Source: Ecdyonurus torrentis (lineage: Eukaryota; Arthropoda; Insecta; Ephemeroptera; Heptageniidae). From it: a DNA stretch of 64,000 nt. The translations under genes were made by a program, and so were the position numbers. Below the pieces are notes generated by a model that saw only the letters and a program-made list of their open reading frames with translations, was not told the origin of the DNA and made no database searches. Shown here piece by piece: positions 19,199 through 61,835 of the stretch (the stretch's first letter is position 1; the number at the start of each line of letters is the position of its first letter). The stretch spans positions 18,729,298 through 18,793,297 of the forward strand of contig OX439137.1 of the NCBI GenBank assembly GCA_949318235.1. Direction: 5' to 3'.

Positions 19199-19606
19199 AT
19201 GCTTTCTTGCTCCTATATATTGCATTGCATATTATTATACCTAACCACGGTGGTTTAATTTAATTAAATACAGTATATATATATTATATCATGGTTAAAA
19301 AACAATATAATGCAATATAATTGTGATATATATTCTATTTATATACTTATCAAATTACTGATAATGCTACTTGTTTACACTAAAAATAACTAGACTAAAT
19401 TTTTTACCTTTAAATAATTTACAAATAGTGGAAAAACAAAATTGTAAAGTTTAAAAAAAAAAATAATAATAATAAAAATTAATAATAGGCCTATAGTAAT
19501 AATAAATATATTATCTTTACTTTCTTATTTCTTATTTTTTACTTATATCAATTTAAGGAAAAAAAAAACATCACAGTTAGGATAAATAATAAAGAAAAAG
19601 ATAGAA
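19199..19606. other. AT-rich spacer
   Basis: No gene or recognised repeat. Confidence 0.5.
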
Positions 19607-19629
19607 TTAGCAGCGCTATGGCCTTACTT

Positions 19630-19955
19630 TTAGCACAGTAGAAGTTGTATGGAGAGGTCGAGGTGTCACGTGGCACAGTGTTTAGTTATAATGTTTATAT
19701 ATATAACTGAGAGCTTTTGTCATATGTTATATAATGACATTATCAATCAAAGAAGAGATTTACTTGAGCACATCACTGAGCAGTGTGTAGTCTTATTGTA
19801 CTGTACTGTGAAGTGCTCAAGTAAATCTCTTCTTTGATTGATAATGTCATTAACATATATGACAAAAGCTCTCAGTTATGATATAAACATGTTTATAATA
19901 AAGCACTGTGCCACGTGAGACCTCGACCTCTCCATACAACTTCTACTGTAGCAAA
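19630..19955. mobile_element. Long palindromic MITE family S copy 1
   Basis: Near-symmetrical arms share CAGTAGAAGTTGTATGGAGA, CACGTGGCACAGTG, GACATTATCAATCAAAGAAG and ATTTACTTGAGCACATCAC. The two halves meet at about 19795, so a transcript could form a hairpin of about 320 nt. The second copy at 34510-35035 is expanded. Confidence 0.82.
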
Positions 19956-20500
19956 CTAGCAAAGCCTTTATTGGTAATTCTGTCCTTTTCTTTATTATTG
20001 TTGTTAATTATGATAAATTTTTTGCATTATTTTTTACTTATTTTTCTTTTTTAGTTGAAAATATATAATTGTGAATTTTAATCTAGTTTTTGACTGCTAC
20101 AATATGTTGTTCTGTGTAATCTTGTTATATACTGTAAAAATTATTTCTATTAGAGATTAGAGCCGCTTATTATATGGCCATACATTCAGATGAAGATTTC
20201 AAGTGAAGAACAACTGCATTGAAATTTGCACACGTTATTTCCATATATATATATGTGAATAGAAAGCATTTTATTGTAAGTCAAAAGTCTGGCTCTCTCC
20301 TGACAGAATTTTAAGAGCAGATGATTTTGTCAAAAATAAAGTAATCTACGTACAGCACACATGGTCTAATAAGTGCATGAAATAGTTGTATATTACTACA
20401 TACCAATACCAGAATATAAGTTAAATATAATATATATATATATATATTATAAAAAAATGATAAATCATTATCCAAATAATAATTTTCGTATCTCTCTTGC
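19956..20500. other. AT-rich spacer
   Basis: No supported gene. Short TA runs occur at about 20431-20447. Nothing else is recognised. Confidence 0.45.
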
Positions 20501-22262: not shown

Positions 22263-22644
22263 TATATGTGTGTTACATCTAGCATGTGTATTTTTTTAAG
22301 ATGGGGAATCAGCTACTATGGGACATATGACTTATAAATTGTTTAAGAAAAAATTCTGAAATTTTGCATATTTAAATATAATAAGTTTAAAAAAAAAATT
22401 TTTTAGATAATAGTTGATAGAGATTAGAGCACGTTGAATTGAAAATTAATAAAACGCGAAAATTCTCTAATTTAAATAGTAAATTGGGACTAGGGATCAA
22501 ATATTCTAGCTTGAGCTAGTTAAAAAGTAGACGTTAAAAGGATGGAGGTATAGTGTCAAAATAAAATACGATGTGCCTAGCATCTCACGTTCTCACACTA
22601 CGTCAAAGACACAACATTATAAAACAGCATCAGACTTACTCTTT

Positions 22645-22689
22645 GCCTTAGACCGGTTTCGTCCTTTACCTAGGACTCATCAGTAAGGC
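22645..22689 (-). ncRNA. Type I hammerhead ribozyme with minimal helix III
   Basis: Read on the minus strand: helix I 5' GCCUUA, core CUGAUGA, helix II GUCC, loop UAGGUAAA, GGAC, core GAAA, then CCGGUC and helix I 3' UAAGGC. Helix I is 6 of 6 paired and helix II is 4 of 4. All core positions match the hammerhead consensus and the cleavage triplet is GUC, so the predicted cut is between 22651 and 22650. Helix III is only ACC:GGU with no loop. As ACCGGU is self-complementary, activity is likelier as a dimer, as described for short-helix-III hammerheads of animal retroelements. Confidence 0.9.
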
Positions 22690-22739
22690 TCGGCAGAGAG
22701 CTCTGTACAGCTAGAGATGGCTCACACCACATCTGCTAA

Positions 22740-22782
22740 CTGACTGAGCTGAGGAAGCAAGTGGCAGTCGCGTTTTTATACG
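22740..22782 (-). promoter_or_regulatory. TATA/Inr-like promoter upstream of the hammerhead
   Basis: On the minus strand TATAAAAA (22773-22780) is followed about 30 nt later by TCAGCT and TCAGTC Inr-like motifs (A at 22750 or 22745), in GC-richer sequence. Transcription would start about 55-60 nt before the ribozyme, placing it in a 5' leader. The prediction rests on motif spacing only. Confidence 0.45.
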
Positions 22783-22976
22783 CGATGCCCCCGCAGCTGC
22801 ACGCGCTGATTGGTTAAAATCGCGCGCGCAAACTCGGCTTGCTGTTTAAAACCTCTCATCCTCACACTGTAATATAAAATCGTGTCTAAGAGGGGTGTAA
22901 GACAGGCAGCCAGCAAGCAATATGTGTCCTCCCTCACTTCCCAGAGTTCCCCAACTCTAGAAAGATCGCGAGAGCA

Positions 22977-23294
22977 CTACGCCTACCGACTGCACAGTAT
23001 CGTGATTCACGCTAGTTACATCGCTTTATATGTTGACACTGGGGTAGGAAAAGCAAAAAGATGATAGAGTAGGAGAGATAGAATAAATATTATGCGCTTT
23101 GGCATATAGTTTAATTAATTTAGTACGTGCTCTTATTGACGTTGGCAAGTAAAAGGGCCGAATAAAATAAAAATGAAAGAATATTATTTACAAAAGCTTA
23201 AAATTAAAACAAAAAGATCGACTTGGCGATAATATGCGTATTAGGAAAAAACCATCGCGGTTAGTATTAATAAGTTAAAAAAATATATATTTAG
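22977..23294 (+). repeat. Left arm of long inverted repeat
   Basis: It pairs with 23392-23710. Reading both arms through, I find a single one-base length difference in about 318 bp, at an A/T run. The loop is 97 bp. Such near identity implies a recent duplication or gene conversion. Confidence 0.92.
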
Positions 23295-23391
23295 TATTTT
23301 TAGTATTAAAAATATTTACTATTTAAATTAGAGAATTTTCGCGTTTTATTAATTTTCAATTCAACGTGCTCTAATCTCTACCAACTATTTT

Positions 23392-23710
23392 CTAAATATA
23401 TATTTTTTTAAACTTATTAATACTAACCGCGATGGTTTTTTCCTAATACGCATATTATCGCCAAGTCGATCTTTTTGTTTTAATTTTAAGCTTTTGTAAA
23501 TAATATTCTTTCATTTTTATTTTATTCGGCCCTTTTACTTGCCAACGTCAATAAGAGCACGTACTAAATTAATTAAACTATATGCCAAAGCGCATAATAT
23601 TTATTCTATCTCTCCTACTCTATCATCTTTTTGCTTTTCCTACCCCAGTGTCAACATATAAAGCGATGTAACTAGCGTGAATCACGATACTGTGCAGTCG
23701 GTAGGCGTAG
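23392..23710 (-). repeat. Right arm of long inverted repeat
   Basis: Inverse of 22977-23294. It starts at CTAAATATATAT and ends at GTAGGCGTAG, after which the flanks diverge. Confidence 0.92.
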
Positions 23711-24605: not shown

Positions 24606-24944
24606 GGGCTGAACTGTTAGACCTCTGAAATTAAAAATAAATAAATGCCTAGTCGTAACCAAAGAATGCCGCTTCTGCTAGAGCGACTCAATCCATAAGC
24701 CAGGCATACACACACAACGGCAACGTACACAGAATAAAATCTTTTTAGCGCTTTTTAGTAAAATTCATCTAAATATAAAAAGTTGGTAGCCCTGATTTTA
24801 CAACAGCTGTACGAAAAAGTAAACAAAAACATAAAAAAGTGCTTTGTAGAAATGAAATTATCAATTGTTTAACTAATTAAGTGTTAAAATTGTGATTAAA
24901 TTAATTAAAAATCATTATTAATTGCCTAATAAACAATTATAAAA

Positions 24945-26678
24945 ATGTGTATCAGTTCTGATAGCTGTTTAGGACAAACTATAGAATGTTGTATCGTCAC
25001 TCTAAAAAAATTTAATTTCAATCAAATTTTGATACGTGATAAATTAGAAATAATTAGAATTGGTAGACCCAAATGTGAATTAAATCAAGATTTTTCAAAT
25101 CAAAGTTTAAATGTTAATTTATATGAACAAGTTATGTGGTTAACAGGTTGTTCAAAATTAAATAAATTATTTTGTTGGGCGTGTTTGCTGTTCAATAACT
25201 GTGATACAAATCAATGGACTAGTGATGGTTTTAACGGTTCTGAAAGTCAGTTGAACGATCAAATACAAATGCATGAATCAGATGAGAAACACATATTTGC
25301 TTTACAGCAATTAGAAGAAATGAAAATTGATATTCATAGAAATGATGACGATGATGATGATTTTATGAATTCAAAATTTGATGATAGTTTAACAAATTTT
25401 TTAACTTATACAAATTCAGATATTACTCAAGAATTATTTGAAAATACTTCAGGAATAATTTTAAATACAGATTTTGCAAGTATATATGAAGAAAATATTG
25501 AAAATACTAGTGACATTCTTTCACATTTACAAGAAAGTGCTACTGAAATCGTTCCAAATTTACATCAAAACTTTGAAAATACTCCTGAAATTATTTCAAA
25601 TTTACATCAAAACATTGAAAATGTTCCTGAAACCATTTCAAATTTAAATGAAAATATTGAAAATGCTTCTGAAATCGTTTCAAATTTGCATCAAAACCTT
25701 GAAAATGCTTCTGAAATGGTTCCTAATTTACATCAAAAATTTGATAATATTTCTGAAATGGTGTCAAATTTACGAGAAAGCATTGAAACCGCTTCTGAAA
25801 TAGTTCCAAATTTTCAAGAAAATATCTCACAAGCTTCTGAAATCGTTCCACACTTGCTAGAAAACATTGAAAACGCTTCTGAAACAGAGTCAAATTTTCA
25901 AGAAAACTTTGAAAACGTTTCTCAAATAGTTTCAAATTTTCAAGAAAACTTTGAAAATGTCCCTGAAATCGTTTCAAATTTCGTATTAAACATTGAAAAC
26001 ACCCCTGAAATAATTTTAAATTTACAAGAAAATATGATAGAAAATTCCCCTAAAATCATTTCAAATTACGTAGTAAATCTTGAAAATGCTTCTGAACTGA
26101 TTTCACAATTAATAGGAAACATTGAAAATGCTTCTAAAATTGTTTCAAATCTACAAGAAACACCTGAAAATACTTCTGAAATAATTTCAGATTTAGAAAT
26201 TACAACTCCAATCATAGAAAATATTGAGAATAATACAATTCCTGAAGTACCAGTAACTGATAATTTAATTCAAAAATTAGTAAAACATCGTACTGAAAAC
26301 ACAGAGTTCACTTTAGATCATATATCTACATTTTTACTGGAGATACAAAAGATTTTACAGTTTGGTAAACCTAAACCTGTTCTCAACACCATGAAAAAGT
26401 TATTTCGTGAAAACCCGACGATATTATACGACAGAGTTACGTGGTTAACAGGATGTGATATCACCAAGAAACTTTTCTGTTTGCCGTGTCTGTTCTTCAA
26501 CCCTCTAGCCATCCCTCTCAATACCATAGGCTATGATCTTGTATTTCTATTAAGCCAAGTTAAATATCATTCCAATGACGAGCAACATTTGGCGGCTGTC
26601 AAGAAAATGGAAGAAATGTATCAGAAAATTTTAGAATTAGAATCTGCATCGGAGGCGAATCTTAATGTTATTTATATG
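24945..26678 (+). CDS. Exon 1: TTF modules 1 and 2 and coiled-coil repeats
   Basis: ATG at 24945 follows an in-frame TAA 15 bases upstream, so it is the first possible start. Module 1 has WLTGC at residue 65 and CWAC at 77-80. An acidic DDDDDD patch near residue 135 precedes 14-residue repeats (about 182-420). Module 2 has WLTGC at 500 and CLPC at 512-515. The exon is very AT-rich, unlike exons 3-5. The donor ATG|GTAATA at 26678/26679 leaves phase 0. If unspliced, the frame would continue 19 more codons to a stop at 26736. Confidence 0.85.
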
Positions 26679-29600
26679 GTAATAAGTTTGAAGTATAATA
26701 CAGTAAACTATCATGTTTGTGAAATTACAAAGGAATAAGAAAGTATAGCCCTTGTCAACTTACTTTTTTATCATTTAGAAATACTAGATTGATAGTTACC
26801 ATACCTTATTATCCATGAATTAGACACCAACACGTTGATTTTGTATTTATTTTTATTTTGAAGGTTATTTCACGCATCTGGGATCACAATGTACCAATGG
26901 GGTCGTGAGGGGGGGGGGGGGCAAAGAACTTGAGGGAAGGGCTTTAATGTATCACGTGACCAGAGCGGTGACTGTGATTGGCAGTGGTACATTGTGACGT
27001 CAGATATGTGAAATAATCGTCGAAATGAAAATAAATACAAAATCAACATGTTGGTGTCTAATTTATGGATAATAAGGTATGGTAATTATCAGTCTAATAT
27101 TCTAAATGATAAAAATGTAAGTTGACAAGGGATTTAACATTGGTATGCTTACATTGAAGTCTGCTGCTGAACCAATAGCAGACGTTGTAAAAGTGTGATC
27201 AGTGATAAAATAAACAAACTGACAGCTCAACAATACTAACAAAGTGCTAGCAGACGACTTTGTGTTCCTGTCTACATTTAACATGCTTTCTTATGAGGCA
27301 ATGAAGCAGCTATTACTTAAATTAAAATCATTTCTTGGAGCTAAAATTTTTATTGAAGCTTACTGAGCCTCAAGGCTTTGTTTTCTTGGATTTTAATTCA
27401 ACTGGATGATTTGTAACCAAATGGATTGTAATTTAAGAAAACAAAAGCTTTTAGGCTTAGCAAGCTACAGTAAAAATTTCAGCTCTGAGAAATAGGTGTA
27501 ACTCCAGTTATAGCTGCTTAATTACCCCATAAGAAAGCATGTTAAATGTAGACAGGAACACAAAGTCGTCTGCTAGCACTTTGTTAGTATTGTTGAGCTG
27601 TCAGTTTGTTTATTTTATCACTAAACCTACTTTTGCAACGTCTGCTATTGCACATATTTTGAAGTAAAAGAACTGCTAATAAATGATAAATGCTAAACTT
27701 TAGTTGTATTTACAGGACAGCACTGAACAATCAGAAATTGTAGAACTACTCGTTGACAACCCAGAAAACATCGTACAAATCCTAACGACACACTCACCTG
27801 ACATCGATGCTAAAATTGATATCGTGCTGAAGGGAAGACCAGGCTACGACAGTATACTAAACCCCAAGCATGAACATAGCTACAATCTGACCTCCTGGCT
27901 TACTGAGTGTTCTGTCACTAAGAAACTCTACTGCTGGCCTTGTCTCTTGTTCAATAGCGATAGATCTAAGTGGAATAGCGAGGGGTTCAGTAACGTTAGC
28001 GTGGCGTACCAGGCAGCATTCCACTCTGAGTGTGAGAGACATAAGAATGCAGTGAGAGAACATTACGCGTGTGTCAGAGATACTGGGGTGTATAATGAAC
28101 TGTTGGACAAGCATGGGGACTCAGAGGAGAGAGATTGGTTGCTTTGTAAGCTGGGGATTGATTATGATGTTATTACTGATGATGTCGTGCAGCGAGAGAA
28201 ATTTGCTGTGAGTATCATGCAGGGAGAAATACTATTTTTACATGCTTTTTTTTTTCTTCTTTTCTTTCACAAAATGGCAAGCTGGCAATTTTTATTTTTA
28301 TATTATATTTAAAACACATAGATTACATACATATTCATTTCATATGGTCGTATATGATCATAGCTTCAGACAGCACAGCTCGTGTTGAAGCAAATCATAA
28401 AAAAATATATAAATATATATACAGTATACATAATAATAATAATAATAAAGAAAGATACATTTAAGCAATTGTGCAAGGTGGAATATTAGAGCTGTCAATC
28501 TCTAGAAAAAAAAATAATTAATTGTATATAAACATAACAAATGCAAATAAATTGAAACTCCAACCATGTGCAAGCTTTCACTTTTCCCTATCTCTCTAGA
28601 CACAGAGCACTTCTGAAAGCAGCTCTGTGATTGGCTTTCAATTTCACGTGAATCGTTTTGCCCATATACCTAGTTAACATTGCTGTTACCGAAACGCATG
28701 ACGTCACAGCAGCTAGTGAGCTCCCCTTGACTATGAGTTACATACTATGTATTTTGTATTAAAAAAAAGTAATGAAGTGAGAGTACTTGGTATTTACTAG
28801 TGACTTTAGCTAACATGAGCTTGTGTACCTTGCAGCAACGTATGAGACTCCACCCGTCTCCCTCGTGTCACTCAGATAGCGTGGACCAACTTCTGCAGCT
28901 GTCGTCACAACCCCCTGAGAGCAGTGATAAAGTACACCTGCTTCACCAAGGACGTCCCACCCCCGCACTGCCAGGCTTCGACCTACTCCAGCTCAAGTCA
29001 ACGGACTTCACTGATAAGTCCGTCAACTTGTACTTCTATGTGTATAGGAAGTTCTATAGTAAATACAAGTGGTTGACTGGATGTGTACTGAGAAATAGGT
29101 TTGTATTTTTTATATTAGATAGAGATGAGTTTTCTTAGAAGGATGTATGTGTGGTAAAATAAGATTAGATAGGGTAAGGAATACTTGGAAAACCATGGCT
29201 TGCAAGCTCACTGCTTGAGTGAGATGATATACACCTAATTATATTTTGTCTAGCCTCCTCTACTCTATACCACTTTCAGGGTATTGTCAATCAAAATGAC
29301 AGATATTTTAGTTTGTTGGGTGTTATTAGTTAGTTTGTGGTATTTCCTATGGATATAGTCACCTCAAATTTAGTATTATCTATTGGGGAAAATCAGAAAG
29401 TTTGGATGATGTTTTTGTTATGCAAAAACGTGCAGTAAGAACTATCGTTGGTAATTATCCCCCAATGTCATGATAATATAAAACTGATGTTTGTTTAAGT
29501 AATGTTAGTTGTAAAGGAGGGGCTATTTGTATAGATTTTGTAAATATTTATTGTGTGTGTTTTCTTTGTTTTTTTCTTGGACCAGATCTATATTACTTGT

Positions 29601-31742
29601 ATGTAATCCTCTGATTAATAAACTTGTTTATGAATTTGAGTTTTCTGAGAAGTATGTGTGGTAAAACAAGATTAGATAGGGTAAGGAATACTTGGGTGAT
29701 GGAGAAATGTGGAGTAAAAGAAACTGTGACTGAGAAGTATGAGAGCAGTGTGTTATGTAAGGTGGTTTGGTCATGTTGAGAGAATGGGTGATGAAAGAAT
29801 AGCAAAACAGGTACATATTCCATAGCTGAGTGGATGGAAGGAGAGATAGAGGCAGCTTGCCTAAAACATCATGGTCTGAGGTGGTTGGAAGATGTTTGAA
29901 AAATAAGAATGTACGCTGCAGTATGAGATGCAAAAGGAAATGTATGAAACAAGGTATGAGACTGGAGGAAGCAAGTGAAGTACTGTATGTCAGGATAGGA
30001 AGTTGTGGAGGTCTATCACTGGGTCACTACCACGAAAGGGATTATAGCATCATGATATGTATGTGTTTATGTATATTAAATAGTTTTTGTTTTCCCCCGT
30101 GTTTTATGTTATTTACAAGATCTACAGTATACAGAGTGTATAAGTATACAGAATGCACTTTGATGCCATACTGAAGCAATAAACAACATTGCTCAGCATA
30201 GGACAAACATCGTTTTATTCAATTTTCTTTGAAAAATTAGTTTGTTTGTTTTATTAATATTTGTTTGTTTAACAGGTTATACTGCTGGGCCTGCTTGTTT
30301 TACAACACCAAAAACCAGACGTGGGCTTGTGATGGGTTCAATCACTTCCATTCAGAGCCTGATATTCTGTCAGCCTTGGAGGAGCATGGAGAGTGCGAGG
30401 AACACCGTGCAGCGGTGGAGAGACTGGCCAGTGTGGCGGAGGTGCAGGAGGTGGAGGTGCAGGAGAACCTCGTCAGTTCTTCAGAGAACATTGCGGCAAG
30501 TCTAGAGGAACCTACTGAAGTACCCATGGACATCAGCTTGGTTAGTATTATTATATTCAACTTGCATAGAAAACAATACACATACATTTTTAGTGGTTTT
30601 TATTATGTTAGTGCGTCTCAGTATTGCTGGAATAATTATCAATGTTCATTGTTATGAAACTTCTTCATTGATTAAGGCAGGAAATTGACTACCGCAAAAT
30701 TTAACTAAAAAGTTGTAAGAAAAGAAAAAATCTGAAATTTTGCACAGTGATACAATAGGATGAAGTATCTTCACAAATTTAAAAAGTAATAATAATAAGG
30801 ATAAATACTAAAGAAAATTTTGAAATGCAATGCTAGGAGAAAGCATACACTGGTCTTACCATAGTGAAGAGAGTCCCATAGTTTGGTGACAATTCTTGCT
30901 AGCACAGATATAAAAACTAGCATATTGCAAATATTTTGGTACGTAATAAACTACAAGAGAGATGGAGTGTTTTCATCAGTCATTACAGACTTGGAGAGAA
31001 TTAATAGTTTCTCTCCAAGTCTGTAATGACTGATGAAGACACTCCATCTCTCTTGTAGTTTATTGCTGAAATATTTCCAATATTTTATATCTGTGCTAGC
31101 AAGATTTGTCACCAAACTATGGGACTCTCTTCACTATGGTAAGACCAGTGCTGGTTTCTCCTAGCATTTACTTTCAATTTTATCATATTTATCAACTTGG
31201 CCTATCCTATAAATTTATTATGTATTCTTGCCCTTTCAAATGTTTTGTAATAAAAATTACGTATTTAGATAATTTGTATATTTACAATTTTCTTATTCTT
31301 GTTGCAGCCCACATCTAGTCCCCCCACTCTTGCACCCCAAGTGGACCTCACCTCCTCTGTTGCACCACCACTGTACAACACGACAGCTACACAAGATATC
31401 ATAGACAAAATACTGATGATTCCACTCAAAGAACGTCCCAGTTCCTCCGTAGTGAAATATTACGCTGCATTACCTAAGCCGACGCCTTTGTTAGTCAGAC
31501 AGCAACGTGAGACTGACGTCACCCTCACGTGCAATCTATACGTCAAGTACGACTGGATCACAGGGAGTATCGTACATCAGAAACTGTACTGTTGGCCGTG
31601 CCTATTGTGCAATGTATCCAAGGGTAATTGGAGTTGTAGCGGGTATGGTAAGATGATAGATAATAAGATTGCATCACATGTTAATAGCTTGAGTCATAAG
31701 TTAGCTGTAATACAGTTGGTCTCATTGCAAGTCAAATCTTAG
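24945..31742 (+). CDS. Five-exon gene for a tandem TTF/BED-like zinc-finger protein (about 1062 aa)
   Basis: Exons: 24945-26678, 27716-28207, 28836-29098, 30276-30540 and 31308-31742. All introns are GT-AG with compatible phases (0, 0, 2, 0). The product has five modules of about 100 residues. Each has a (G/E)(R/K)P element, W(L/I)T(G/E)(C/S), K-L-(F/Y)-C-x2-C-L and Hx5H; the predicted zinc ligands are C77/C80/H110/H116, C512/C515/H542/H548, C651/C654/H681/H687, C833/C836/H867/H873 and C1013/C1016/H1042/H1048. This is the TTF-type finger of hAT transposases and ZMYM1-like proteins. No DDE or hAT dimerisation region follows. A heptad-repeat block (about 182-420) separates modules 1 and 2. DNA binding and dimerisation are inferred; cellular role unknown. 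Confidence 0.82.
25483..26206 (+). repeat. 42-bp tandem repeat encoding 14-residue double heptads
   Basis: About 17 units of 42 bp encode variants of N-L-x-E-N-I-E-N-A-S-E-I-V-S. Hydrophobic residues fall at spacings 4-3-4-3 (L, I, A/V, V/I), the pattern of a continuous amphipathic helix or coiled coil exactly two heptads per unit. Units differ by several substitutions while length stays at 42 bp apart from occasional small in-frame changes, suggesting selection on the reading frame. The opposite strand shows a sham Phe/Gln-rich frame. Confidence 0.85.
26749..27131 (-). mobile_element. Palindromic MITE family B copy 2
   Basis: Ends CCCTTGTCAACTTA and AGTTGACAAGGG. The core has TATCACGTGACCAGAGCGGT and TGACGTCA, in the opposite order to copy 1. 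A 12-base G run interrupts it. No clear target duplication is visible. Confidence 0.8.
27173..27650. mobile_element. Palindromic MITE family C copy 2 (uninterrupted)
   Basis: Arms run from CAATAGCAGACGTTG to CAACGTCTGCTATTG with inner CAACAATACTAACAAAGTGC and GTGTTCCTGTCTACATTTAA. The unfilled centre shows what copy 1 (1893-2662) looked like before element B entered it. Confidence 0.82.
27716..28207 (+). CDS. Exon 2: TTF module 3
   Basis: Acceptor TATTTACAG|GAC, phase 0. It encodes 164 residues with GRP at about 618-620, WLTEC at 639, CWPC at 651-654 and Hx5H at 681/687, then a charged tail. The donor GCT|GTGAGTAT at 28207/28208 matches the consensus well and leaves phase 0. Without splicing the frame runs into phenylalanine-rich non-coding sequence. 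Confidence 0.85.
28208..28835 (+). other. Intron 2 with a CRE/CCAAT-containing patch
   Basis: AT-rich with TA and AAT runs. 28590-28720 is GC-richer and carries TGATTGGC (inverted CCAAT), CACGTG-like sequence and TGACGTCA. No MITE end was recognised, but the CRE context CGCATGACGTCA is that of family K. Confidence 0.55.
28836..29098 (+). CDS. Exon 3: N-terminal part of TTF module 4
   Basis: Acceptor CTTGCAG|CAA, phase 0. It encodes 87 residues plus two bases, with a Ser/Pro/Gln-rich linker, GRP, and WLTGC near residue 821. The donor AATAG|GTTTGT splits an Arg codon (AG|G). GC content is near half, unlike exon 1. Confidence 0.85.
29127..29187 (+). mobile_element. Left piece of an RTE-type LINE, duplicated at 29637
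   Basis: About 60 bp from GAGTTTTCTTAGAAGGATGT to AAGGAATACTTGG is repeated in diverged form at 29637-29697, where the element continues. The two flank the repeat I and LINE block, like a long target duplication. Confidence 0.7.
29189..29322 (+). repeat. Dispersed repeat family I copy 1
   Basis: It matches 33180-33310 with GCTTGAGTGAGATGATATAC and CTAGCCTCCTCTACTCTAT. No frame is seen. It may be part of a LINE body, as a LINE 3' end follows directly. Confidence 0.6.
29323..29636 (+). mobile_element. Jockey/CR1-type LINE 3' fragment
   Basis: One frame at 29350-29460 reads YGYSHLKFSIIYWGKS followed by VFVMQKRAVRTIVGNY, the conserved C-terminal region of Jockey- and CR1-group reverse transcriptases (SHLxYxIxxWG...LQKRAxRxIxG). 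After it comes a short 3' UTR ending CTGATTAATAAACTTGTTTA. It is strongly 5'-truncated and inactive. Confidence 0.85.
29637..30115 (+). mobile_element. RTE-type LINE 3' fragment with frameshifts
   Basis: Frames read TRLDRVRNTWVMEKCGVKE, then after a shift WFGHVERMGDERIAKQ, then after another shift DGRRDRGSLPKTSWSEVVGR. These are the C-terminal motifs (GHVERM, GRP-K-W) of endonuclease-reverse transcriptases of RTE and related LINEs. Broken reading frame; no activity expected. Confidence 0.8.
30149..30243 (+). mobile_element. MITE family K fragment next to a splice acceptor
   Basis: GAATGCACTTTGATGCCATACT, CATTGCTCAGCATAGGACAA and a TCTTTGAAAAATTAG block match K elements. The fragment ends beside the T-rich tract that serves as polypyrimidine tract for exon 4. 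Confidence 0.7.
30276..30540 (+). CDS. Exon 4: C-terminal part of TTF module 4
   Basis: The acceptor TTTAACAG|G completes the Arg codon from exon 3, so the spliced frame reads WLTGCVLRNRLYCWACLFYN without a break, strong evidence for the junction. Hx5H lies at 867/873, followed by an acidic Val/Glu-rich tail. The donor TTG|GTTAGT leaves phase 0. Confidence 0.88.
30670..30775 (+). repeat. Dispersed repeat EE
   Basis: It shares AATCTGAAATTTTGCACAGT and the following GATACA...GTATCTTC with 33510-33620, and a shorter match at 22300-22375. Confidence 0.55.
30830..31170. mobile_element. Palindromic MITE family E copy 2
   Basis: The ends are AATGCTAGGAGAAAGC and CTGGTTTCTCCTAGCATT, with inner arms as in copy 1 and the inverted ATTACAGACTTGGAGAGAA / TTCTCTCCAAGTCTGTAAT core. 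It is more symmetrical than copy 1. Confidence 0.85.
31308..31742 (+). CDS. Exon 5: TTF module 5 and stop
   Basis: Acceptor TTGTTGCAG|CCC, phase 0. It encodes 144 residues: a Pro/Thr/Ser-rich linker, ERP, WITGS at 1001-1005 (Ser replaces the Cys of other modules), CWPC at 1013-1016, Hx5H at 1042/1048 and a short tail to TAG. The Cys-to-Ser change argues that the WLTGC cysteine is not a zinc ligand. Confidence 0.85.
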   Translation, partial: PTSSPPTLAPQVDLTSSVAPPLYNTTATQDIIDKILMIPLKERPSSSVVKYYAALPKPTPLLVRQQRETDVTLTCNLYVKYDWITGSIVHQKLYCWPCLLCNVSKGNWSCSGYGKMIDNKIASHVNSLSHKLAVIQLVSLQVKS

Positions 31743-34085: not shown

Positions 34086-34509
34086 CCTCTTTTGTGAATT
34101 CATAAAATCGAGTTTTTACTGTATTTGTGTAAGTTGTGTCATTAAGACTTTCGCCAAGCTATGGTCTTCATCGTGGTAAGGCACTGCTTATTGGTTTCTT
34201 CCATCCTTTTCTTGATTACATGTTTAATTTTAAACTTTCCTAATTAATTATACATAATGTATAAGACTTGTTTCAAATCTCAAATTTAACTTGTAGTATC
34301 GTGGCTAAAAATAGGTTTAATGAGTGTTTTAAAAATGGACCATTATTATTTTTTTTTCCCCCCCCAAGAAAGAGGGTGACAATTTTTTGGTTCCAAGTCA
34401 GAAATGTGATTTTACTTTGTATATAACTAATGTTTTATTAAAACAATAATAAATTAAATAAGTGTCTTTATTCAAAAAAATAAAGAAAAGGCTAGATATA
34501 CCAGCACTC

Positions 34510-35035
34510 TGGCCTTACTTAGCACAGTAGAAGTTGTATGGAGAGGTGGAGGTCTCACGTTGCACAGTGTTTTGTTGTAAAAAAAGGTTATTTTATAACT
34601 GAGAGTTTTCGTCATATGTTAATGGCATTATCAATCAAAGAAGAGATTTACTTGAGCACATCACAGTACAGTACAAGACTACACACTGCTCAGTGATGTG
34701 CTCAAGTAAATATCTTAATATTGAATTGTATACAAGTTAGCAGCTTCAGTAGCTAGTTCAATGTAATCAGCTTGTCACCAGGATTACATTAAACTGGCTA
34801 CTGAAGCTGCTAACTTGTATACAAATCAATATTAAAGAGATTTACTTGAGCACATCACAGTACAGTACAAGACTACACACTGCTCAGTGATGTTCTCAAG
34901 TAAATCTCCTCTTTGATTGATAATGTCATTAATATATGACGAAAGCTCTAAGTTATATAAACATTATAACAAAACACTGTGCCACGTGACACCTCGACCT
35001 CTCCATGCAACTTCTACTGTGGTAAGTAAGGCCAG
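34510..35035. mobile_element. Family S copy 2, expanded by a family R insertion
   Basis: Outer arms match 19630-19955. The centre hairpin (ATTTACTTGAGCACATCAC ... GTGATGTGCTCAAGTAAAT) is present twice, on either side of an R element. Either R transposed into a dimeric centre or the insertion was accompanied by a duplication of about 80 bp. Confidence 0.8.
34719..34831. mobile_element. Palindromic element R with TTAA flanks
   Basis: The 113-bp palindrome TATTGAATTGTATACAAG...CTTGTATACAAATCAATA is flanked by TTAA at 34715-34718 and 34832-34835, the target duplication of piggyBac-type elements. Confidence 0.75.
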
Positions 35036-35039
35036 TGCT

Positions 35040-35104
35040 GCTAATTATATAATTTTTTCTTAATTATTGATCCGAATTGCATGGTTTTTTCCTTAAATTC
35101 AAAA

Positions 35105-35585: not shown

Positions 35586-36032
35586 AAGCCTCTTCTTAGT
35601 GTGTTTGTGAGAAAACTACTGCACTGAGGTCACAAATATTTAAATGTGGAATACTAGACATACTTTTACGTGTTTTAAGACTGTAAAATGCACTAATTTA
35701 ACATTATAGAAGCCTCTTGTTAGTGTGTTTGTGAGAAAACTACTGCACTGAGGTCACAAATATTTAAATGTGGAATACTAGACATACTTTTACGTGTTTT
35801 AAGACTGTAAAATGCACTAATTTAACATTGTAGAAGCCTCTTGTTAGTGTGTTTGTGAGAAAACTACTGCACTGAGGTCACAAATATTTAAATGTGGAAT
35901 ACTAGACATACTTTTACGTGTTTAAAGACTGTAAAATGCACTAATTTAACATTGTAGAAGCCTCTTGTTAGAGTATTTGTGAGAAAACTACTGCACTGAT
36001 TGTGAGGTCACAAATATTTAAATGTGGAATAT
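35586..36032 (+). repeat. 124-bp satellite X, 3.6 copies
   Basis: Units start AAGCCTCTTSTTAG at 35586, 35710, 35834 and 35958, exactly 124 bp apart, and are nearly identical. Each has ACTACTGCACTGAGGTCACA and ACATACTTTTACGTGTTT. Further blocks are at 60264-60440 and 61150-61470. Confidence 0.95.
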
Positions 36033-54130: not shown

Positions 54131-54632
54131 GATTGCAAATCTAATTTTATACATCTTGATTTTAAAATGAGATTTTTTTTTTTTTTTAGTGTTTATTTTA
54201 TTATGTTTTTATGTAATATAAATTTTATGTGATAGTTTATTATCATAAATATCAGGACTATTTATTTACATTATAAATAAATGATCAGTAAACACTAGAC
54301 TTTATAAATTGGACCATTAATTGGTCCCGACCAATAGGATTATGGTTTTCAAAACGGCCTTTTTAATTTTCAAACCTTTTCGATTTTGTGAAATGATTTA
54401 TCAGAAGTAAAAAACTCGCGATGTTTTGGGGAGGGGGGGAACGCACTATTATAAGATTGTTATATCTCTTGGGGGGGGGGGGGGGGCACTGTTAACCAAA
54501 TTTATAATATTGAAAATTTGTGCAAAGAAATTCATTCATTAGTATAAGTAAGTTATAATTATACTGAAAGGGGTTTGGCTTTCGTGTTACACCGTGTTAT
54601 ATAAGCAGTAAACTGACATTGTAAAGGAATTC

Positions 54633-54703
54633 GGCTCGACCGGGACTCGAACCCGGATCTTTGGTTTCCCAGACCACTGCGTTAACCATTACGCTACCGA
54701 GAC
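54633..54703 (-). tRNA. tRNA-like gene, anticodon GGG (Pro), likely pseudogene or SINE head
   Basis: The 71-nt minus-strand unit folds as a cloverleaf. The acceptor stem has one mismatch (T2-C) and one G-T pair, the D stem GCG/CGC and T stem CCGGG/CCCGG are perfect, and the anticodon stem has four pairs. The loop CTGGGAA gives GGG. A box TAGCGTAATGG and B box GGTTCGAGTCC are perfect Pol III promoters. No T4 terminator follows for at least 60 nt and no CCA is encoded. GGG-Pro is unusual in animals, which normally use AGG. A tRNA-derived repeat or decayed copy is therefore more likely than a working gene. Confidence 0.75.
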
Positions 54704-61149: not shown

Positions 61150-61470
61150 TACATTAGAGAAAACTACTGCACTGAGGTCACGAATATTTAAATGTGGAAT
61201 ACTAGTACTAGACATACTTTTACATTTCTTAAGACAGTAAAATACACTAATTTAACATTGTAGAAGCCTCTTGTTTGTGTGTTTTTGAGAAAACTACTGC
61301 ACTGAGGTCACAAATATTTAAATGTGGAATACTAGACATACTTATACATTTCTTAAGACAGTAAAATATACTAATTTAACATTGTAGAAGCCTCTTGTTA
61401 GTGTTTTTTTGATAAAACTACTGCACTGAGGTCACAAATATTTAAATGTGGCATACTACATAGACATACT
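61150..61470 (+). repeat. Satellite X block, about 2.6 units
   Basis: Units with AAGCCTCTTG at 61264 and 61388, again 124 bp apart, plus a partial unit before them. Slightly more diverged than the 35.6-kb block. Confidence 0.92.
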
Positions 61471-61835
61471 TTGACAAGGCGTTGTCAAGTGTTACAAATT
61501 TCAATATTTTTGGCCTCAGTGCAGTTGTTTTCATGTGTTAGTATTAAAGTATTATTGTGACAAAATATGTATCAATTATATTTTACAAAATGTGCAATAT
61601 AAAGATTGTTAGTATACGAACAGTTTGGTATCAAAGATTGCTGTACTTCCTTATGGAAATAACGTGGTGATTTCCGTTGTCAAAGACAATTCAATGTTAG
61701 ATTATAATTAGAGCTGTGGTAAGAAGGGGGGAGGGGGGGGGGAGAAGAAAAAAGAACAATCGATTTAAAAAATTATATATTTATACTTATATACTTTGTA
61801 AGGCCTTTTTTTACAGAAAAATAAATTATTTTATT

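What the first reader, a model, noticed from the sequence alone, without database searches (positions are those of the whole stretch)
22645..22689. Complete hammerhead ribozyme core in an animal retroelement fragment
The minus strand contains CUGAUGA, a 4-bp helix II, GAAA, the GUC cleavage triplet and a perfectly paired 6-bp helix I in the right order and spacing. Chance occurrence of all these together is very unlikely. Helix III is only ACC:GGU with no loop, so the motif should work best as a dimer.
Basis: partly seen in the sequence, partly recalled or inferred. Interest (0 to 1): 0.92.

Follow-up and report, generated by a model that had tools for sequence, protein, structure and literature searches.

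The report
Ribozyme-bearing hitchhiker of a Penelope retrotransposon
The window holds a real hammerhead (self-cutting RNA) sequence, one of about a thousand copies with an identical core in this animal's genome, inside a small non-coding mobile element that seems to be moved by a Penelope-like retrotransposon in the same genome, which makes the open question of how such ribozyme elements move directly testable.

Summary
Minus strand 22689-22645 carries a complete type I hammerhead core; Rfam RF00163 gives 30.0 bits, E 1.3e-5, but below the 34-bit gathering cut-off. The 33-nt core occurs exactly 1018 times in the window's own genome, reversed-pattern control 0. It lies in an 884-bp non-coding unit found in tandem arrays and inverted inserts: among 34 close neighbour pairs in the 100 copies listed, 22 are head-to-head, 12 tandem, 0 tail-to-tail. 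Three inserts show target duplications of about 10-17 bp and an extra tail at one end, as reported for Penelope-like elements (PLEs). The tail shares a 22-nt block with a young autonomous PLE there, which has an intact 1003-aa frame and no detectable hammerhead. Two further hammerhead families share the layout, TATA box 97-104 nt before the core. Helix III (ACCGGU) is self-complementary; two short copies cofold as a double hammerhead. Best reading: a non-autonomous, promoter-bearing, retrozyme-like element moved in trans by a PLE, whose dimeric ribozyme cuts multimeric transcripts into 884-nt units. Cleavage and circles were not tested.

The parts
22645..22689 (-). Type I hammerhead ribozyme, helix I to helix I; predicted cut between 22651 and 22650
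   Evidence: Sequence; RF00163 30.0 bits, E 1.3e-5, below gathering 34; simulation; 1018 exact genomic copies of its 33-nt core
22652..22657 (-). ACCGGU, self-complementary helix III; A-U pair with CCGG tetraloop in a monomer, 6-bp duplex in a dimer
   Evidence: Sequence; duplex -8.3 kcal/mol and cofold of two 45-mers as a double hammerhead
22774..22780 (-). TATA box (TATAAAA), 97 nt before the ribozyme core
   Evidence: Sequence; TATA-to-core spacing 97/97/104 nt in families A/B/C. Promoter activity inferred
22809..22813 (-). CCAAT motif 33 nt before the TATA box (also in family C, not in B)
22739..22747 (-). Initiator-like TCAGTCAGT, candidate transcription start about 35 nt after TATA
   Evidence: CAGT at +34/+38 from TATA in A; +17/+21/+33 in B; +10/+37 in C
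22379..23289 (-). Complete unit of the A element (u1-u911; about 884 bp as tandem period), non-coding
   Evidence: Aligned to L009, L013, L027 and L029-L031; longest stop-free frame 70 codons in the L029 unit
23314..23419 (+). Inverted partial copy, 3' region u806-u911 (head-to-head partner)
   Evidence: 94.3% identity
23397..23710 (+). Continuation of the inverted copy into the next unit (u1-u313)
   Evidence: 99.7% identity to the minus copy; homology ends at 23710
23243..23264 (-). PLE-type tail motif CTAACCGCGATGGTTTTTTCCT, identical in the autonomous PLE P1
   Evidence: 22-nt identity to P1; wider P1 match at 23211-23283, 78%
23423..23444 (+). The same tail motif in the inverted copy
   Evidence: Sequence; P1 match at 23416-23476

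Best explanation
The hammerhead is the processing ribozyme of a young, non-autonomous retroelement ('A', 884-bp unit) that behaves like a retrozyme but inserts like a Penelope-like element. Inferred cycle: (1) a TATA/initiator promoter in one unit starts transcription about 60 nt upstream of that unit's hammerhead and reads through the next tandem unit. (2) Two hammerheads in the same or neighbouring RNAs pair through ACCGGU into a double hammerhead and cut after GUC, releasing 884-nt units with 5'-OH and cyclic-phosphate ends. (3) A host ligase may close them into circles. (4) The reverse transcriptase/nuclease of an autonomous PLE in the same genome (P1) recognises the shared tail motif (CTAACCGCGATGGTTTTTTCCT), nicks target DNA and starts cDNA in that tail. 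Going round a circle or along a multimer gives tandem units; priming from both target strands gives the head-to-head inserts with outward 3' ends and duplications of about 10-17 bp. Shown here by sequence: ribozyme architecture, copy number, unit, tandem and head-to-head structure, duplications in three inserts, tail and its sharing with P1, similar TATA-to-ribozyme spacing in three families. Inferred: transcription, cleavage, circularisation, mobilisation by P1.
For: Hammerhead and dimer. 1018 exact cores. A 301-nt promoter-ribozyme query gave 41 genomic matches, each over 301 of 301 bases and printed as 100% (40 at the top score, one slightly lower; only 40 of 1601 candidates scored), on C1, C4, C8, C10, C11. 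Six + copies 884-885 bp apart plus one inverted copy on C10 (ends of this array read in L029 and L030). 22 head-to-head, 12 tandem (886-904 bp), 0 tail-to-tail in 34 neighbour pairs under 3 kb, from the 100 places listed of 1018. Target duplications: a shared 17-nt word at L029/L030, of which about 10 nt lie clear of the aligned ends; 13 nt at L031; about 10 nt at L009, read by eye. Extra tail at one outer end: to u57 (L030), u54 (L031), u61 (L013), in L009 by BLAST to u92 but by the duplication to about u54; the other end near u881-u911. P1: RT at E 1.2e-5, 1003-aa intact frame; 150 scored nuclease-domain matches of 645 candidates at 98-100% identity; 46 of 48 opposite-strand neighbour pairs under 10 kb head-to-head. 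Tail: 22 nt identical P1/A, AACCGCGATGGTTTTTTCCT also in C, TTTTTTCCT in B. Papers, passages only: PLE head-to-head pLTRs, tails, TATA/Inr (PMC3846280); internal RT start with both target strands cut and extended by a lizard PLE (PMC11167929).
Against: Rfam score below the gathering threshold. In 73 nt of context a different single-strand fold is favoured. No RNA data: transcription, cleavage and circles are unshown. P1 itself has no detectable hammerhead, although a review says all available PLE sequences carry one (PMC6155905, passages); so the ribozyme is not needed by the presumed helper, and an unseen hammerhead-bearing PLE could be the true helper, since only P1-like nuclease sequences were scored. 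The 22-nt tail identity is short, although it sits at the insertion end; B shares less. The nuclease domain of P1 was not confirmed by any profile or model. The window's own copy has no recognisable target duplication and its inverted half ends at u313: an atypical or damaged insert. Cleavage by the lizard PLE ribozyme was not needed for insertion in vitro (PMC11167929). Selection on the ribozyme was not fairly tested: the 12 copies aligned were chosen by having it, and the mismatch count did not complete.
Confidence: 0.7

Rival explanations
1. The A unit is simply the pLTR of an autonomous, hammerhead-bearing PLE; the 884-bp tandem arrays are pLTR-only derivatives of it, and P1 is a separate element that happens to share a tail.
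For: Reviews state that known PLEs carry minimal type I hammerheads in their pLTRs (PMC6155905, PMC7761336, passages). Only the best 150 of 645 nuclease candidates were scored, all at 98% or more to P1's nuclease end, so other PLEs may be unseen.
Against: tblastn of the P1 ORF against the window and L009-L031 hit only L025, which finds P1-like frames only; inserts L029-L031 contain A units only as far as fetched (the middle of the L029/L030 array was not fetched).
Confidence: 0.15
2. Insertion works as proposed, but the ribozyme's job is not to make circles: it trims the capped leader or read-through host sequence from linear RNA, or acts only when the PLE protein is bound.
For: The hammerhead sits about 60 nt after the candidate start in three families (start inferred); the lizard PLE hammerhead cut only with its protein present (PMC11167929, passages).
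Against: Tandem 884-bp arrays of six units fit reverse transcription of a circle or a multimer, and axolotl retrozymes with similarly weak helix III are found as circles (PMC7229834, passages).
Confidence: 0.25
3. A dead relic: the motif is carried along in a satellite spread by recombination or segmental duplication and has no activity.
For: Four copies are spaced at about 40 kb on C4, which suggests local duplication; Rfam score below threshold.
Against: Identical copies on five contigs among the scored matches, target-site duplications, head-to-head inserts, 1018 copies with core, helix II and helix III unchanged.
Confidence: 0.06
4. Chance resemblance to a hammerhead.
For: Score below Rfam's gathering threshold.
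Against: Simulation, double-hammerhead cofold, two further hammerhead families with the same layout.
Confidence: 0.01

Closest known systems
Minimal type I hammerheads of Penelope-like elements (Cervera and de la Pena 2014; Lunse et al. 2017; neither paper seen, known here only through citing papers)
   Same: Type I core with very short helix III, reported to act as dimers, in PLE-type repeats
   Different: Here the carrier is a short non-coding unit; the autonomous PLE found in the same genome lacks a detectable hammerhead
Metazoan non-LTR retrozymes (PMC7229834, passages)
   Same: Non-coding tandem units, one type I hammerhead each, GC 39% (below 50%), duplications longer than 4 bp; the ACCGGU helix III resembles the axolotl form of one pair plus a palindromic tetraloop
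   Different: Unit 884 bp (B about 656 bp) against about 170-400 nt; a TATA/Inr promoter-like module, whereas a review says retrozymes seem to lack promoters (PMC7761336, passages; a plant retrozyme LTR promoter is reported in the abstract start of PMC9695139, listing only); PLE insertion marks
Penelope elements of Adineta vaga (PMC3846280, passages)
   Same: Head-to-head inverted pLTRs, optional 31-bp tail at one end, TATA plus initiator, duplications of 8-10 bp
   Different: A carries no reverse transcriptase or nuclease; hammerheads are not described in the passages I read
Poseidon PLE of Anolis (PAc, PMC11167929, passages)
   Same: Reverse transcription starts inside the RNA and both target strands are cut and extended; a hammerhead is present
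   Different: PAc is autonomous and its ORF begins at stem II of its hammerhead

Membership tests
Type I hammerhead ribozyme (RF00163) | Conserved core CUGANGA...GAAA...NUH with helices I and II and open helix I | tested here: met
Type I hammerhead ribozyme (RF00163) | Score at or above Rfam gathering score | tested here: not met
   30.0 against 34 bits; 27 of 32 other matches in the genome pass. I call it a hammerhead by core and structure, not by Rfam threshold
Type I hammerhead ribozyme (RF00163) | Self-cleavage after NUH | not testable with these tools
   Needs in vitro transcription
Dimeric (double) hammerhead | Self-complementary helix III allowing two copies to share it | tested here: met
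   ACCGGU; two 45-mers cofold as the double hammerhead; prediction only
Penelope-like element, insertion structure | Head-to-head inverted and partial tandem copies | tested here: met
   22 head-to-head, 12 tandem, 0 tail-to-tail of 34 pairs, from 100 listed of 1018 copies
Penelope-like element, insertion structure | Short tail at one outer end only, variable target duplication | tested here: met
   Three inserts: L029/L030, L031, L009; duplication not found for the window copy itself
Penelope-like element, autonomous | ORF with reverse transcriptase and GIY-YIG nuclease in the unit | tested here: not met
   Longest stop-free frame in the 884-bp unit is 70 codons: A is not an autonomous PLE
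P1 as an autonomous PLE | Reverse transcriptase domain | tested here: met
   RVT_1 E 1.2e-5, 25.6 bits, though below Pfam's cut-off of 29.6
P1 as an autonomous PLE | GIY-YIG nuclease domain | tested here: inconclusive
   Pfam did not recognise it, no meaningful PDB sequence match, 3 unnamed homologues, model of one of them with pLDDT 44; the motif VIY...FYIG...R..GHR is read by eye from recalled knowledge; a genome search with the Pfam family did not complete
Metazoan non-LTR retrozyme | Non-coding tandem units with one type I hammerhead each | tested here: met
Metazoan non-LTR retrozyme | Unit of about 170-400 nt | tested here: not met
   884 bp; B about 656 bp
Metazoan non-LTR retrozyme | Expressed as circular RNA | not testable with these tools
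   No RNA data held

The most novel reading that the evidence does not exclude
Hammerheads here mark a class of parasites of a PLE: three sequence-divergent non-coding families with nearly the same promoter-to-ribozyme spacing and a 3' tail resembling that of an autonomous PLE that has itself no ribozyme. That would make PLEs the engine that moves animal retrozymes, and make ribozyme-made circular RNA, rather than the helper's own linear RNA, the parasite's template, with head-to-head inserts arising from cDNA primed on both target strands.
Probability: 0.4. Interest if true: 0.8.

Novelty: new variant of a known kind. Interest (0 to 1): 0.6.

Why it matters
How animal retrozymes move is open: published work names PLEs as a strong candidate, on coexistence, shared hammerheads and tandem copies (PMC7229834, PMC7761336, PMC8969392, passages). 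This genome offers a concrete pair: a ribozyme element with about a thousand identical cores and an apparently intact PLE that share the terminal tail and the way of inserting. That turns the question into one in vitro priming assay and one RNA-seq check. It also offers a natural contrast between a helper without a detectable ribozyme and passengers with one.

Tried and rejected
Gathering-level Rfam scan of the window: only a tRNA. Relaxed descriptor hit at window 1099 (minus): long, weak helix II region and only 4-bp helix I, rejected. Window ORFs near the element as its own coding part: the three frames given to Pfam (24933-26735, 27704-28309, 31269-31739) show no reverse transcriptase, and P1's ORF does not match the window. 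Structure model of the nuclease relative P0001: pLDDT 44, not used and not searched. P1 against PDB sequences: two matches at E 0.5, taken as chance. Rfam matches in P1 loci at E <= 5 (23 rows) are microRNA, snoRNA and sRNA models, most on the head-to-head palindrome; taken as artefacts. Conservation of the hammerhead across 12 copies: biased by how the copies were picked and by junctions upstream, not used. Counts of near-identical cores, of a control 33-mer and of the family B core: requests did not complete (between). Papers not held: Cervera and de la Pena 2014, Craig et al. 2021. Literature searches: 'non-autonomous Penelope', 0 papers; 'nonautonomous' + 'Penelope-like elements' + 'hammerhead', 3 papers, listing only; three of 'retrozyme/Penelope/tandem/head-to-head', 14 papers, listing. 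These do not prove absence from print. The species was not identified.

Full report
Observation. The minus strand from 22689 to 22645 reads as a complete type I hammerhead: 6-bp helix I, CUGAUGA, helix II closed by AGGUAA, GAAA, ACCGGU, cut site GUC|U. Rfam's RF00163 covers it end to end at 30.0 bits, E 1.3e-5 in a 351-base search, but the gathering score is 34, so a threshold scan misses it. Simulated sequence of the window's composition met a loose descriptor 3 times in 1200 windows, and the next stricter one (helix I at least 5, helix II at least 4, helix III at least 1) never; the window's motif has 6, 5 and 2 by that count.

The same motif genome-wide. The window lies in a 503-Mb, 117-contig genome of an animal (an exon in locus L020 best matches PTPN3/PTPN4; species not identified). 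RF00163 gives 32 matches at E <= 1e-3 there, 27 above cut-off, with only 74 of 32802 candidates scored; the window's own place is not among the 32. Most of those that I read belong to a second family, B; one (L027, 32.4 bits) is an A copy with one extra loop base. The window's exact 33-nt core occurs 1018 times (510 forward, 508 reverse, reversed-pattern control 0). A 301-nt promoter-ribozyme query gave 41 matches, each full length and printed as 100%, 40 at the top score, from 40 scored of 1601 candidates: a lower bound, and a sign of recent spread.

The unit and its inserts. Alignments define a unit of 911 aligned bases whose ends overlap, giving a tandem period of 884-885 bp on C10 (six + copies and one inverted copy). 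It is non-coding (longest stop-free frame 70 codons, GC 39%). Among the first 100 listed core copies, 34 neighbour pairs lie within 3 kb: 22 head-to-head, 12 tandem (886-904 bp), none tail-to-tail. Duplications flank the three inserts that I examined, other than the window's: a 17-nt shared word at L029/L030 (about 10 nt of it clear of the aligned ends), 13 nt at L031, about 10 nt at L009 by eye. One outer end carries an extra stretch (to u57 in L030, u54 in L031, u61 in L013; u92 by BLAST in L009, where the duplication puts the end near u54), the other stops near u881-u911. The window's copy is a complete minus-strand unit (22379-23289) and a partial inverted copy (23314-23710) with neither promoter nor ribozyme; no target duplication was found for it. 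Family B repeats the pattern with a period of about 656 bp (b-494 equals b162) and a one-sided tail, for example in L021, L022 and L023.

The likely helper. A frame in L025 resembles the nuclease end of PLE proteins; 150 of 645 candidates in this genome were scored, at 98-100% identity, with open frames up to 1027 codons. One copy (P1, L036) has an intact 1003-aa ATG-to-stop frame with a reverse transcriptase match (E 1.2e-5, below Pfam's cut-off). The nuclease assignment rests on a motif read by eye; Pfam, PDB, three unnamed homologues and a low-confidence model did not confirm it. Of 48 opposite-strand neighbour pairs within 10 kb among those 150, 46 are head-to-head and 2 tail-to-tail. P1's non-coding region from the stop codon to the next start was read in L034, L033 and L035: no CUGANGA in L033 or L035, and the one CTGATGA in L034 is antisense and lies past the end of P1 homology; Rfam at E <= 5 finds no hammerhead in L033-L036. 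Its tail shares CTAACCGCGATGGTTTTTTCCT (22 nt) with A; C has AACCGCGATGGTTTTTTCCT, B only TTTTTTCCT of it. A's u7-u79 is 78% identical to the P1 tail and start of its 5' leader.

Promoter and ribozyme. A, B and C (C seen once, L027) have a TATA box 97, 97 and 104 nt before the core and a CAGT initiator-like word 34, 33 and 37 nt after TATA; B and C have further CAGT words at other offsets, A a second one at 38; A and C also have a CCAAT word 33 nt before TATA. This is sequence evidence only, and A and C are related in this stretch (74% identity), so they are not independent.

How it probably works. The loopless ACCGGU cannot form a stable hairpin in one molecule: the 45-nt monomer's best fold mispairs the core (-14.7), while two 45-mers cofold into the double hammerhead at -31.9 kcal/mol, a modest gain over two monomers (-29.4); with 73 nt of context a different single-strand fold is favoured (-21.4 against -15.2). 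Amphibian retrozymes with an equally weak helix III cut poorly as monomers and better as dimers (PMC7229834, passages). I infer read-through transcription of tandem units, dimeric cleavage to 884-nt RNA, possible circularisation, and reverse transcription by P1 from the shared tail. A lizard PLE starts cDNA inside its RNA and cuts and extends both target strands (PMC11167929, passages), which would explain head-to-head inserts; the A. vaga authors prefer self-priming on antisense RNA (PMC3846280, passages).

Known or new. Minimal, dimer-acting hammerheads in PLEs and hammerhead retrozymes in animals are known, and PLEs have been proposed as retrozyme movers (PMC7229834, PMC7761336, PMC8969392, PMC11722881, passages). 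New here, as far as the searches reach, is the combination: a long promoter-bearing non-coding unit, PLE insertion marks, and a tail shared with an autonomous PLE without detectable hammerhead in the same genome. I file it as a new variant of a known kind. It works like a retrozyme and inserts like a PLE; it is not an autonomous PLE (no ORF) and departs from described retrozymes in size.

Limits. No RNA evidence. Counts are lower bounds or from listed subsets. The requests to count near-identical cores, a control 33-mer and family B did not complete (between), so purifying selection on the ribozyme is untested.

Noticed in passing
window 19543-20000 and 34480-35099: Two inverted pairs of stretches about 77-81% like the 3' UTR and tail of P1 (one short piece 85%), i.e. 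further PLE-derived inserts in the window.
   Followed up: partly
window 24933-26738, 27704-28312, 28776-29138, 30241-30657, 31269-31742 (+): Five open frames repeat a Cys-containing module like 'WLTGC..KLFCWPCLLFN' (complete in some, partial in others, by eye), possibly exons of a duplicated zinc-finger or transposase-derived gene; the first also holds 14-aa coding repeats (42-bp tandem array 25533-26195) (Pfam weak or none for the three frames given).
   Followed up: partly
window 35586-36031 and 61157-61501: Two arrays of what looks like the same 124-bp satellite, 25 kb apart.
   Followed up: no
L027:1983-2483 (+): Third hammerhead family C, seen once: promoter related to A, different ribozyme sequence, helix III core ACGU, same tail motif.
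   Followed up: partly
window 22630-22702 (-): Beyond helix I an internal loop and a second CUCU:AGAG stem are possible, as in canonical type I hammerheads with loop contacts (recalled); family B has similar CUCU/AGAG words by eye.
   Followed up: partly
G000:C4:38438330, 38478640, 38518950, 38558994: Four A matches at the top score spaced about 40 kb, suggesting a local segmental duplication.
   Followed up: no
window 54632-54703 (-): A tRNA-like gene, 58.8 bits; anticodon not determined by tool.
   Followed up: no
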